A stretch of DNA of 64,000 nt, taken from Perkinsus marinus ATCC 50983. Its lineage: Eukaryota; Perkinsozoa; Perkinsida; Perkinsidae. Location: assembly GCF_000006405.1 (NCBI RefSeq), contig NW_003205427.1, positions 272,968-336,967 of the forward strand, given 5' to 3'. Position numbers and translations under genes: made by a program. Positions 891 through 62,188 of this stretch are shown piece by piece; position 1 is the first letter of the stretch, and every line of letters begins with the position of its first letter. The notes beneath the pieces were generated by a model. The model made no database searches. It was not told the DNA's origin and saw only the letters and a list, made by a program, of their open reading frames with translations.

Positions 891-3800
891 ATGGCTGGTG
901 GAGGAGGAATGGCAGCATCATCTTCATCAGGGCCTGTCTACTCGTCCGAGAACGAACAAGTACTTTACGTTAGAGATGTTAGAGTGAGGATAAGGCCCCT
1001 CGATAGGGAAGAGTAAGTCCGACAATATCATATGGTAGCCTCGGTAGAAGCAAGTCTAGGTACTCCGCGAACCTCACGTTGAAGCTATCCTTACAGTCAC
1101 CAAGTGCCTCCTCCAACTCGGGGAATGGGAGCAGAGGAGGTATCCCCGGTGCTCTCATGATAACCATTACGAACAGTCGGGACCCGTTCTTCCTGTAGTA
1201 CTGGGAACCACGATTTGGGCGAGGTGTGGTATGGAAGGTACACGCTGTCCCTTGCTGAGACCGACTACCACACTCTCAAGACGGAACAAAGGCTACTTGT
1301 CGACTTCCAAAACTTCCCTAAGATGATTACTGAACTCGTCGCCGAATGCGTAAAATGGGGGGTATGTCATCTTACTGGTGAAGTGCTGTTGCCCTCCATC
1401 AGGCCCACAATGGGAGCAGCCCCCCGACAGGAGGTCAGAATATGTCCGTCTACTTAGCAGTGGGAGAATCGACTGTTGAGTCCACGCTGAGCATAATAGA
1501 GGCTAATCAGTTCAGAGAGATCACCCACTTGTGCTTAAGAATGCGGAAAGGTAATTCTACTGGTGAAATTCTAATGAAGTCGAACTCTTTGGAAGAGGCA
1601 CATGACGTCTATGTTGCTCATCCTCATGAAAAGATTGTGGTCATGCAGGCACAGATGAAGTGTTAAAGCATTATCTAGCTTCCAAGCTGAGCCACTTCCA
1701 GCAGCTTGCTGAGAGACTCGAGGAGACATTGTGCAACACAGAGAAGGAACTAAGGTGGGGTCGATGGTCGAATTGGGGTATACTCGTAGTGGTGATGAGG
1801 GTCGTCATCGTCAGGCGAGTGACCACAGAGCGACAGTCTCAAGCGGACGAGATCAATCTGATGAAGGTGAGCGGTAGGGTGTTTTTGCGGGAAGTGAGCT
1901 TCCTGTTGACCTGTGGTTAGGGAGGTAGTGCTTGTCGGCGTACGAGACCTTGTGTGGCCTTATATAGGGGTATTACTTTTATTCATTCCAGGCGGAGCGG
2001 TGTCAGCTCGAACAGAGCCTCAAGGCTGTTCACGAGAGGGAGTTAGCCGAGATCAGCGAACGGCATGCTCGGGAGATTCGAGACAATCACCACACGTATC
2101 CGCATCGCAGACGACTCGAATCGGCTTTATTCGTTCCTAATAGACTCACGGCGGAGCGGGACAATGTAGTGAAGGAGTTGTCGACTCAGCTGGAGACCGC
2201 TCAGGCGGCAGCAGAATCATCAACGAAAGCAGCGACAGAGGCTAATGAGAAGGTGGATAGAAATGCCGGCTGCTGGGATCGAACCGGAGTTCTCTTTCAG
2301 ATAGTCGTACTTGAGAACTCATTAGCCAGCTTGACTCGGAAGCTTGAAGCTGCCTCGAAGGAGTTGGAAGAGGACAAGGAGCGGTATGGATCTACGAGTG
2401 CTGAGGTGAAAAGGCTCGAAAAAGAGAAGTACTGGAGTAGCTTAGCTATGGCTTTTTTTGGAAGAATCGCTGTTCACTAGTTACGCACTAGAAAAACGAC
2501 TGTCTGAGGCGGAGGTGTCTCTGGCCCTCTCCAAAGAGCAATTAGTAGCAAAGGAGGAGCTTGCTAGTAGGAGGATATATACAACTGTATAGTCTGTATC
2601 GTTGCGAATATATACACTATGCGCAATCTCAAGAGTGCGTTTCGTGTCACCAGCGTGTCACCAATTTTCACCTTATTATATTGTCGTCGGAGCAAACTCT
2701 GGACGAAAATTTTTGCTAAAATTCTTATGTGCTTTTTACAACAGCTTGAAATTTACTCCGTATGGTACGAGTGTAGTCGCTACTTTGATCCGTATAGTTG
2801 CTGAGTAGTAGTTGTTGTTGGACTATAATGAGGTGGTGATAGAGTACGTACGCCCACGTACACGAGGTGAATGGGATGGTTGATCGCAGATAAGTCAAGA
2901 GAGTTGCTGGAGCAGGCTAACCAACAGAAGTCATCGTTGGAAGAACAGATACAAATGTGCGGCTTGTGAGGTTCGAACCCGGGACCATATGGATGGCAGG
3001 TATCGGAGTAGTCTCACTCAGCTAGAAGAGAAGCTGAGTGTTAGCTTCAAAGAGACCACAAAGGGCAATGAAGTGATCAAGAAGCTGCAGGATCAGATCA
3101 AATCATATAAGTCTAGAGTGAAGGGTCTAAAACAGGTGATCGGGAATCGGTTCATCATACCACTCTTTTCTCGAATCGTATTCTCCTCATCGTTGTGATG
3201 CTTAGTAAGTAGACTAATCGAATCTTCTTCAATTAGACTTGTCCAGTTGAAGGCATTGTTCTAGTCTTCTCATATTTGGTGATGGTCGGTCACTGTTGAA
3301 AGGGTCGACCCTTCTCCTGTTGCAGGATATGCAGACTCACGAGGAGACGATTCACGAGTTGGACCACCGTCTGCTGGAGGAGCAGAGGTCTCATGACGAC
3401 ACCAAGCTGGAGCACAAACGTATTGTGTATTCCCGTCTGGGCAGTGGGAGCGGTGACCTCGTTCAGGAGCTCTTGATGCGTTGGATAGAGCTCAGGAGGA
3501 GTGTGACTCGACTAGGGCTAAACTGGCGGAGGCGCACAAACTACTAGAGTCGAATGAACAAGTGATCTCCTATCTCAACAAACGTCTTACTGACCGAGAT
3601 GTGAAGGTAGTAGTAGTGGTAGTAGTAGTAGTAGTAGTAGTAGTAGTAGTAGTAGTAGTAGTAGTAGTAGTAGTAGTAGTAGTAGTAGTAGTAGTAGTAG
3701 TAGTAGTAGTAGTAGTAGTAGTAGCGGATGCTACTGTTCGATGAAGTCGATGGTAAGCAAAGTGATCAGGTGTTGTCCGGAGTCGAGACATCATCATCAT

Positions 3801-59810: not shown

Positions 59811-62188
59811 TTATTTTACCAACGTCCTAGTAGCGACGATAACCTGAGGAGTTGACATGACCGAAATTAACGGAGACTCCACAAAATTGGAGGTCCTCAA
59901 CAAACTACTATCACCTCCTCCCCAACGACCGCCGCCGCCGCCGCCGCCTCCACCACCGAAGCCTCCAACCGTCATTGACAGGCGTTCCAGTTCGGGCGAT
60001 ACCTGCAAACACACGCTACAGAAAACTTGCGCACATCCCTAGTTAGATCACCCGGAAATGCTATAGAAAAACAAAAGTGTTCGACAACTTACCGTTTGAT
60101 TCGCCTCGCGTAGGATTTGAACTAGGCCTCTGGCCATCTTAATCTTATCAGCAGTGAAGAACGTATAAGCATTCCCCTTACACCCCGCTCTTCCCGTACG
60201 GCCTGTCACCATTGTAAATGACAATTCCAACCACAACAGTCATTCTACACTCACCTATCCTATGCACATAGTCTTCGATCTGACCCGGGAAGTCATAGTT
60301 GACAACATGGCGGATGTCTTTTACGTCCAGGCCACGACTAGCTACATCTGTAGCAATCATAATGGGGCTCTTACCCGACTTAAACTCATGAAGTACCTAC
60401 AACACCATATACAAGGCAATACCATCAACAGCAACGTACCCAATCCCTCTCCTCTTGCTTCTTGTCACCATGAATGCACAGGGCTGGCCAACCGTCCATC
60501 CTGAAAACCATACATAACATCAAAAATACTCCTATGCAAACTCACCTCAGCGTCCTCGTGAGGTCATCAGCTCCTCTTTTAGTATCAGTAAAAATGAGCA
60601 GCTTAGAGCCATCCATAACCCTCTCAAGGAGTTGCTTCAGTCTGTCCCTCTTCTCGTACTCTTGTACCACATCCACATACTGCGTAACACTAAGACAAAT
60701 CGAAAGTCTTTCGCCTGGCCCTTCGAAGACAGCGAACTACTTGTGGCAAGCCTTCAGAGTGAGAGTACCAACATTGATATGGACAGGCTCCTCCCGACAC
60801 AGGTCCCTCGCCAAGCCCTGGACCTCTTTGGGCCACGTCGCCGACCACAACAACGTTTGCCTATCTGGACGGATCTGCGATGTAATCTTGCGAATCTAAA
60901 AACGACAATATGACCCTCGCTACCGTAACTTTCCCAAAACCCACCTGAGGCTCGAATCCCATATCAAGCATACGATCGGCCTCATCCAACACCAAGTAGG
61001 TGACTCTACGTAAATTGGTCCTCTGCGACTCCAGAAAATCGATCAATCGGCCGGGCGTGGCAATACATATCTCCACCTGTCAACCGGAGATGCACAACAA
61101 AACTCAATGCCTGAGGCAACCTACCCCCTCGGAAAGATCCCTAGCCTGAGGGCCTCTGGGGACTCCTCCATAGCAACAAGTGTTCTTGATCTTAGACGAC
61201 TTGCCAAACTTATTGCACTCCTCCTGAATCTGAACTGCCAACTCCCTCGTTGGAGCCATAACCAGGACGATCGGACCATCACCTGAGATAACATCAAAAA
61301 AATACGGCGTAAATTGGTAGTAGGAATTGTCTACACGTAAAAAGATGAATACTCAGAGAAGGCGAAATCAAGGGCATACACATTCACAGTAAACTTGTAT
61401 AAAGATATTATATATCATCCTCAACAACTTACCACGTTGAAGGTAGGGCTGAGCATTGATATGAACAATAGCAGGGAGAAGGAAGGCCAAAGTCTTCCCA
61501 CTCCCGGTCTCGGCAATGCCCACCATATCACGGCCCGACATAGCAACTGGCCAACCTTGTATCTATCCAACAACACCAACAACCATTGCTGCCTCATACA
61601 CTGATGATCGTAGCAGTACTTGTATAGGGGTCGGAGCCACAAACCCAGCTTGTGCCAGTTCATGCAGAATGTAGTCAGGGAAACCCGCTTGCTCGAAGGT
61701 AACTAAGGACAGACATTAACCAGCAAGGCAGTCCACTAAGGCAACTCACCGATGGGACGAGGTACGTTACGACCGGCCACGATGGTGATGTCGTGCTTCC
61801 TTCTGATATTGTCAACTTCCTCAGGGGTAAGGCGACTAACGTCCGGATGCTCTATGTAAAAATTCTTCTCAAACTTGGTCAACTGGATGTGACTCCAATC
61901 CTAAAGACAATGAAATATCCGAAAGAGAAAACTAATTTATACAAAGCTACTTGAGAATGCAAACGAGCGCCAAGACCAGAATTCATAAAGGAGCTTCCAC
62001 TGCCTCCTCCACCACCACCAAAGCCAAAGCCCCCAGCTCCAGCAGTGCTGTAACCACCAGTATCATAGCCCTGGTAGGAGATTAACTAGCGTAGGGTTTA
62101 CCAAGGCACTTACCCTAGACCCGCCAAAGCTGCCCCCATAACGATCCCTCGAACGAGAACGGGAACGGTGACGATTGGCGTAAGACAT
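59811..62188 (-). CDS. DEAD-box RNA helicase, DDX5/DBP2-like
   Basis: An ATP-dependent RNA helicase. ATG 62188 gives MSYANRHRSRSRSRDRYGGS and a Gly-rich leader. The core carries GFVAPTPIQ (Q motif), MVGIAETGSGKTLAFLLPA (motif I), VMAPTRELAVQIQ (Ia), ATPGRLIDFLESQ (Ib), LVLDEADRMLDMGFEPQ (II), LLWSATWP (III), LIFTDTKRGADDL (IV), MIATDVASRGLDVKDIRHVV (V) and HRIG|RTGRAG (VI, split by a 52-nt intron). The preceding EHPDVSRLTPEEVDNIR and RNVPRPI are DBP2/p68-specific. After ILREANQTVS comes a tail with a poly-Gly run at about 59.94 kb (coded by GCC/CCG repeats on the plus strand) and a possible stop at 59811; the tail exons are less certain. The intron at 60203-60254 resembles a decayed introner copy. 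Confidence 0.9.

What the first reader, a model, noticed from the sequence alone, without database searches (positions are those of the whole stretch)
2253..60254. Introner-like intron family built on a tRNA T-arm/B-box core
At least nine short GT...AG introns in four unrelated genes share a core: sense GGTCNNGGGTTCGAATCCC...GGCATTTTT, or its reverse complement. Intervals: 2253-2300, 2958-3000, 15841-15938, 39366-39471, 40193-40269, 40338-40396, 48944-49030, 49199-49250, 50473-50526, 50858-50919. A 10-12 bp core this specific should occur by chance less than once in 64 kb. The coding frames on each side join cleanly, so these are spliced introns. The core matches the tRNA T-loop (Pol III B-box) with the acceptor tail and T-run, so I infer that a tRNA or tRNA-derived SINE fragment has been turned into an intron-generating element. 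I know of introners in other protists; I do not know a description of a tRNA-derived family like this.
Basis: partly seen in the sequence, partly recalled or inferred. Interest (0 to 1): 0.93.

Follow-up and report, generated by a model that had tools for sequence, protein, structure and literature searches.

The report
tRNA-like motif filling short introns
In a Perkinsus parasite genome, hundreds of copies of a 36-base sequence laid out like the tail end of a tRNA gene are scattered in both directions, many of them making up most of a very short intron, which hints at a new source of introns.

Summary
The observation largely holds; the mechanism is open. The window is from a Perkinsus species. 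The core AGGTCNCNGGTTCGANTCCC-N8-CATTTT has 778 genome matches with up to 3 mismatches, against 0 for the reversed pattern, on both strands. Six more introns (Dim1, DBP2/DDX5, Brr2 twice, ELP3, a Ufd2-like gene) are supported by homology across the junction. Ten of these 13 are 47-59 nt, so the motif nearly fills them; the others are 77, 80 and 157 nt. The layout is tRNA position 44 to 73 plus a T-run, but it is not a tRNA: T-stem pairing equals shuffled expectation, the A-box score equals control, and Rfam tRNA is not matched. No target-site duplication and no empty site in four loci was seen. Best reading: a B-box, tRNA-3'-half-like sequence that spread and forms introns, introner-like. Main rival: a constrained B-box binding site housed in introns. 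The papers I searched and read do not describe it.

The parts
39366..39417 (+). 52-nt intron of the RRM gene holding the element in antisense (core on - strand, profile match 39383-39418)
   Evidence: P. olseni P0011 reads GHPEIQ|VKWQVTNLPAG with the exon resuming at 39418
40193..40269 (+). 77-nt intron of the RRM gene, element in sense (40200-40235)
   Evidence: P. olseni P0011 YKKML|EKVKEQ contiguous; coordinates
40338..40396 (+). 59-nt intron of the RRM gene, element in sense (40348-40383)
   Evidence: P0011 and P0012 EKAK|ARDAAIR contiguous
48984..49030 (-). 47-nt intron of the UTP4/cirhin gene, element in antisense (core on + strand, 48989-49024)
   Evidence: P0009 LCFITSSSSMLYCFK contiguous over the junction, joined by hand; coordinates
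49199..49250 (-). 52-nt intron of UTP4/cirhin, element in sense (49206-49241)
   Evidence: P0009 GDVHCMGIS contiguous over the junction, joined by hand; coordinates
50453..50532 (-). 80-nt intron of UTP4/cirhin, element in antisense (core on + strand, 50484-50519)
   Evidence: P0009 VRRSSENHDLAIF against hand-joined VRRSSANHDLAIF
50858..51014 (-). 157-nt intron of UTP4/cirhin, element in sense at its 3' end (50861-50896)
   Evidence: P. chesapeaki P0010 EDGSIALGNT against spliced DDGSLSLGNT; P0009 starts downstream of this junction
2253..2300 (+). predicted 48-nt intron in a coiled-coil gene, element in antisense
   Evidence: gene model with a bonus for this intron; no homology test
2957..2999 (+). 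predicted 43-nt intron in a coiled-coil gene, element in antisense
   Evidence: gene model with a bonus; no homology test
15890..15938 (-). predicted 49-nt intron, element in antisense (core on + strand, 15897-15932)
   Evidence: gene model with a bonus; no homology test

Best explanation
A dispersed family of short (about 36 to 40 bp) B-box elements with the layout of a tRNA 3' half (variable loop AGGTC, B-box GGTTCGANTCC, about ten bases, CA, T-run) has spread through a Perkinsus genome in both orientations, and many insertions into genes act as complete short introns. In sense copies the T-run often lies just before the 3' splice site and can serve as its polypyrimidine tract, with a GT some bases upstream of the core; in antisense copies a GT lies just outside the A-run and the AG lies beyond the AGGTC end. 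Shown: the family, its size, both orientations, the place of 13 introns by protein homology, a moderate excess of splice-like trinucleotides next to the core. Inferred: that insertion created these introns, and that the source was a tRNA-related, B-box-bearing sequence. Unknown: how copies move.
For: 778 matches against 0 control; 69 exact matches of a 25-bp pattern against 0 control. Seven window introns placed by orthologous proteins; Brr2 x2, DBP2/DDX5, ELP3, Dim1 and Ufd2-like introns spanned by homologous alignments. Similarity between copies with unrelated flanks is sharply bounded at the 36-bp core. Beside the core: GTR within 16 nt upstream in 46 of 77 copies (background 33%), YAG downstream 29 of 77 (23%), YAC downstream 27 of 77 (22%) (binomial P 2e-6, 0.004, 0.008). 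Tight intron model in 27 of 51 copies against 538 of 2082 random positions (P 4e-5). Two predicted introns in unrelated loci are 41 of 47 identical up to and including the AG (L107, L135), and another pair 39 of 44 (L092, L136). UTP4 has four, the RRM gene three and Brr2 two element introns by homology; L107 and L135 have two each by prediction.
Against: No empty site in four single-locus searches; the close duplicates found over the element (C52 of L107, C295 of L092, C134 of L061, C93/L111 of L064) carry it. No direct repeats at intron ends above ordinary introns (mean longest repeat 3.69 in 35 against 3.74 in 78). Ordinary introns here are also about 51 nt, so a 36-bp motif would nearly fill an intron anyway. 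Positions 66-69 are at background identity between copies while the B-box is near-constant, which one decaying master copy does not explain. 24 of 51 sampled copies have no tight intron. CTR upstream, expected for antisense acceptors, is not enriched (28 of 77 against 34%), and YAA and YAT downstream, not expected, occur in 19 and 21 of 77 without a computed background.
Confidence: 0.5

Rival explanations
1. The motif is a DNA-binding site (a B-box for TFIIIC without Pol III genes, or another multi-contact protein) kept by selection; in a gene-dense genome with 50-nt introns, introns are simply one of the few places where it can sit.
For: Position-specific conservation with free spacer bases and no RNA pairing; no A-box; copies outside introns. 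In the one diverged duplicate pair found by its flanks (L107/L134), fixed positions differ at 4 of 23 and free positions at 6 of 11, P 0.045. TFIIIC-only B-box sites in other eukaryotes are recalled; one search was a listing only.
Against: A site with 23 fixed bases is unlikely to arise de novo hundreds of times; intron-to-intron similarity beyond the core in two pairs. The constraint test is weak: of the nine pairs compared, the second most diverged (3 of 23 against 4 of 11) had both members found by the pattern, one close pair (L107/L137) goes the other way (1 of 23 against 0 of 11), and three pairs show no difference at all.
Confidence: 0.27
2. Fragments of ordinary dispersed repeats that carry a tRNA-related core landed in introns that already existed.
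For: A ~320-bp dispersed repeat (41 scored matches of 135 first-look candidates) carries the core in 17 of 20 copies fetched by its 3' part; of the other three one is N-masked there and two lack it.
Against: Intron copies share nothing with that repeat outside the core, and in many short introns the splice sites lie within about 15 bases of the core.
Confidence: 0.15
3. Real tRNA genes, tRNA pseudogenes or chance matches.
For: The genome has 63 scored tRNA matches, and two of the eight exact 13-mer loci first fetched look like tRNA genes (L003, L007).
Against: 778 against 0 control; no T-stem pairing, no A-box, no Rfam tRNA match.
Confidence: 0.03

Closest known systems
Introners (introner-like elements) of algae, fungi, dinoflagellates and Amoebophrya
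   Same: One sequence family supplying many short spliceosomal introns in unrelated genes; some published families lack TSDs and TIRs (PMC9860276, passages read).
   Different: Shared unit is only 36 bp with freely varying positions; no TSD seen; B-box/tRNA-3'-half layout. The main text of PMC9860276 holds no 'SINE', 'tRNA' or 'Perkins' (word-start find); Amoebophrya introners are defined by inverted repeats (PMC7789003, passages read).
tRNA-derived SINEs
   Same: B-box, tRNA 3' layout, T-run.
   Different: No A-box above control, no T-stem pairing, no upstream acceptor partner.
Extra-TFIIIC (B-box only) sites (recalled)
   Same: B-box without A-box or tRNA.
   Different: Mostly fixed AGGTC and CATTTT on either side; many copies spliced out within introns; binding untested.

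Membership tests
Introners | One repeated family lies in introns of many unrelated genes | tested here: met
   13 introns in 7 genes placed by homology
Introners | End-to-end similarity of the introns | tested here: not met
   Per-column identity outside the core is mostly 0.24-0.34 over 7678 unrelated-flank pairs of 126 copies, a set that also holds repeat and tRNA copies; exceptions are two pairs
Introners | Presence/absence of the intron between alleles, duplicates or species | tested here: inconclusive
   0 empty sites in four loci; no other Perkinsus genome to hand
Introners | Target-site duplications (49 of 130 scorable families have them, PMC9860276) | tested here: not met
   35 element introns against 78 ordinary introns, no excess
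Introners | Terminal inverted repeats | not tested
   no dedicated test run
Introners | Splicing shown by RNA | not testable with these tools
   no RNA reads; orthologous proteins used instead
tRNA genes or pseudogenes | T-stem base pairing | tested here: not met
   44, 37, 42% at 51-63, 50-64, 49-65, equal to shuffled; 13 distinct tRNA sequences 100%
tRNA-derived SINE | A-box upstream of the B-box | tested here: not met
   group means of the best score 6.05-6.39 in 83 copies, control 6.11 (113), tRNA loci 7.97 (32)
TFIIIC-only B-box sites | B-box consensus without A-box | tested here: met
TFIIIC-only B-box sites | TFIIIC occupancy without Pol III | not testable with these tools
   needs binding data

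The most novel reading that the evidence does not exclude
A new route of intron gain: a tRNA-3'-half-like, B-box sequence (drawn from many diverged sources or spread by a TFIIIC/Pol III-linked process) inserts in either orientation and is at once usable as a 45-60-nt intron, with several hundred to perhaps a thousand copies in one genome.
Probability: 0.3. Interest if true: 0.88.

Novelty: new variant of a known kind. Interest (0 to 1): 0.68.

Why it matters
Most described introners look like DNA transposons (59% of scorable families show a TSD or TIR, PMC9860276), others are of unknown origin. A family tied to the tRNA/Pol III sequence world would add a source for new introns, and its small fixed core makes intron gain directly countable by comparing Perkinsus genomes. 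If instead the motif is a maintained B-box site, it would be an unusually common class of TFIIIC-type sites housed in introns. Either outcome is testable with sequence comparison and RNA reads.

Tried and rejected
Real tRNA genes: rejected. Anticodon-loop signature that would show cleaved tRNA halves: T33+R37+A38 together in 5% of 73 copies, shifted registers 1-5%; only a faint composition bias from position 38 on. Acceptor-stem partner upstream: 1 against 3.0 shuffled. Greater conservation of the core inside the 320-bp repeat: 0.94 (fixed) and 0.91 (free) against 0.86 and 0.85 in the flanks, 17 of 20 copies, three dropped (one N-masked, two without the core); inconclusive. Coding score around 77 copies (which include repeat and tRNA-locus copies): median 15.6 against 11.0 at 385 random positions; 27% above the null 90th percentile, 17% above the 95th, 5% above the 99th; too weak to decide. 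A first self-trained gene finder ran away and was discarded. Forced gene models used the element intron in 26 of 27 loci, but with a bonus, so this is not a test. Of those 27, 14 were sent to homology searches: 4 of 4 PDB searches matched across the junction, but these four were picked by eye as recognisable; of 10 in Pfam, 8 had no family, one Brix match was below its cut-off and did not span the junction, one Ufd2 core match was over its cut-off and its stretch covers the junction. The second Brr2 element intron was seen by eye and has 5 mismatches to the pattern by my count. The paralogue at C80 of the L107 gene stops at the second intron's place with a stop codon, so it says nothing on an empty site. 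Spacer control: N7 with CATTTT gave 0 against 69 for N6 with CATTT; the two patterns also differ by one T.
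Full report
Identity of the window. It lies in a 54,459,702-base, 347-contig assembly (C261:272968-336967). Its methyltransferase ORF is 68% identical to a P. olseni and 57% to a P. chesapeaki protein, so this is a Perkinsus species other than those two; P. marinus is my guess from recall.

Checking the observation. The 13-mer GGGTTCGAATCCC with up to two mismatches occurs 9 times in the window against 1.41 expected. 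Genome-wide it occurs 84 times exactly, with 2 for the reversed pattern; two of the eight loci first fetched look like tRNA genes. GGTTCGANTCCC-N6-GNCATTT has 69 exact matches and no control match. AGGTCNCNGGTTCGANTCCC-N8-CATTTT with up to three mismatches has 778 (400 plus, 378 minus) and no control match. At that rate the window should hold 0.91 copies; it holds 6, and five other 10-kb stretches had none above threshold, so density is uneven.

Are they introns? Orthologous proteins settle seven. An RRM gene (P0011-P0013): 40193-40269 and 40338-40396 as given; 39366-39417 instead of 39366-39471. Three others (2253-2300, 2957-2999, 15890-15938) rest on gene models in which the intron was given a bonus. 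Outside the window, alignments run over the junction in DBP2/DDX5 (L053, antisense copy, 47 nt), Brr2 (L088, two copies, 53 and 52 nt, with a five-residue gap between the junctions and the second copy a diverged one), ELP3 (L099, 58 nt), Dim1/U5-15K (L004, 50 nt) and a Ufd2-like protein (L103, 47 nt). Thirteen introns in seven genes, of 52, 77, 59, 47, 52, 80, 157, 47, 53, 52, 58, 50 and 47 nt: ten of 13 are 47-59 nt.

How general is it? Of 51 copies with up to three mismatches in the loci have a GT-AG intron of 38-62 nt with open flanks, against 538 of 2082 random positions (P 4e-5). The loci were chosen for identical cores and are left out of that figure: there 3 of 15 had a tight intron; in the window 5 of 7 (up to four mismatches). 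GTR upstream and YAG and YAC downstream of the core are enriched, CTR upstream is not. Ordinary introns in the same data are as short (median 51 nt), so a tight fit alone does not prove that the element made the intron.

What the core is. Copies with unrelated flanks agree only within about 36 bp. Its mostly fixed bases fall on tRNA positions 44-48, 50, 52-58, 61-63, 72-73 and a T-run; positions 66-69 are at background. It is not a tRNA: pairing at 49-65, 50-64 and 51-63 equals the shuffled value (copies filtered as the 73), against 100% in 13 distinct tRNA sequences of this genome (T-loops located in 19 of 30 tRNA loci); A-box scores equal control; Rfam finds no tRNA in 20 element loci at E<=1, its only match being a sub-threshold tmRNA hit of 15 bits (gathering 47, E 0.014) over the element of L095. 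So what is kept is a B-box-like DNA sequence in tRNA order, not a tRNA fold.

Movement. Two predicted introns in unrelated loci are 87% identical over 47 nt up to and including the 3' AG, and another pair 89% over 44 nt; seven places in the genome match the extended form of the first with up to three mismatches, control 0, two of them duplicates of one locus. That is evidence of copying beyond the core, but for few members. No TSD excess. Four loci searched for an empty site gave none. A separate ~320-bp dispersed repeat (41 scored matches of 135 candidates) includes the core in 17 of 20 copies. In one diverged duplicate found by its flanks, fixed positions differ at 4 of 23 and free ones at 6 of 11 (P 0.045), a hint of constraint and support for the rival; the other eight pairs of that call are too similar or pattern-selected to add weight, and one goes the other way.

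What is known. Searches of the held library: 'introner' with 'tRNA' 13 papers, 'Perkinsus' with 'introner' 1, 'SINE' with 'intron gain' and 'tRNA-derived' 4, 'introner' with 'dinoflagellate' 13, and (listings only, some cut). I read passages of PMC7789003, PMC9860276, PMC3101222 (P. marinus introns with canonical GT/AG ends, 39-1622 bp, most under 100 bp) and PMC11453091. Nothing in those passages describes a tRNA-related introner or this motif in Perkinsus; the 2023 dinoflagellate introner paper cited was not read.

Verdict. The family is real, large, bidirectional and often intron-filling (about 0.9). That it creates introns is the best single reading (0.5), with a constrained B-box site as the main rival (0.27). 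The odds are as first written: the mended counts did not require a change.

Noticed in passing
L074-L084; genome-wide: A ~320-bp dispersed repeat starting near ACTAGGCCTTCGTGACGAAGG, 41 scored matches of 135 candidates, carrying the tRNA-like core in 17 of 20 sampled copies.
   Followed up: partly
window 18611-18669, 8800-8851; L064:1216-1290: An AT-rich repeat unit of about 60 bp (GGGTAGAAGTGTACA...) that makes up 39 of the 41 matches listed for the L064 query.
   Followed up: no
window 40193-40269: The P. chesapeaki orthologue P0012 has four extra residues (GGLG) exactly at this intron's position, which may mean another splice choice or an insertion there.
   Followed up: no
window 10990-11061 and 47589-47660: Two ordinary tRNA genes, Pro(AGG) and Ala(TGC).
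   Followed up: no
window 41550-43484: Single-exon methyltransferase-like gene with P. olseni and P. chesapeaki orthologues; weak core-like matches inside its coding frame are probably chance.
   Followed up: partly
window 3605-3724 and about 39908-40070: Long trinucleotide microsatellites (AGT and TTG units) inside or beside genes.
   Followed up: no
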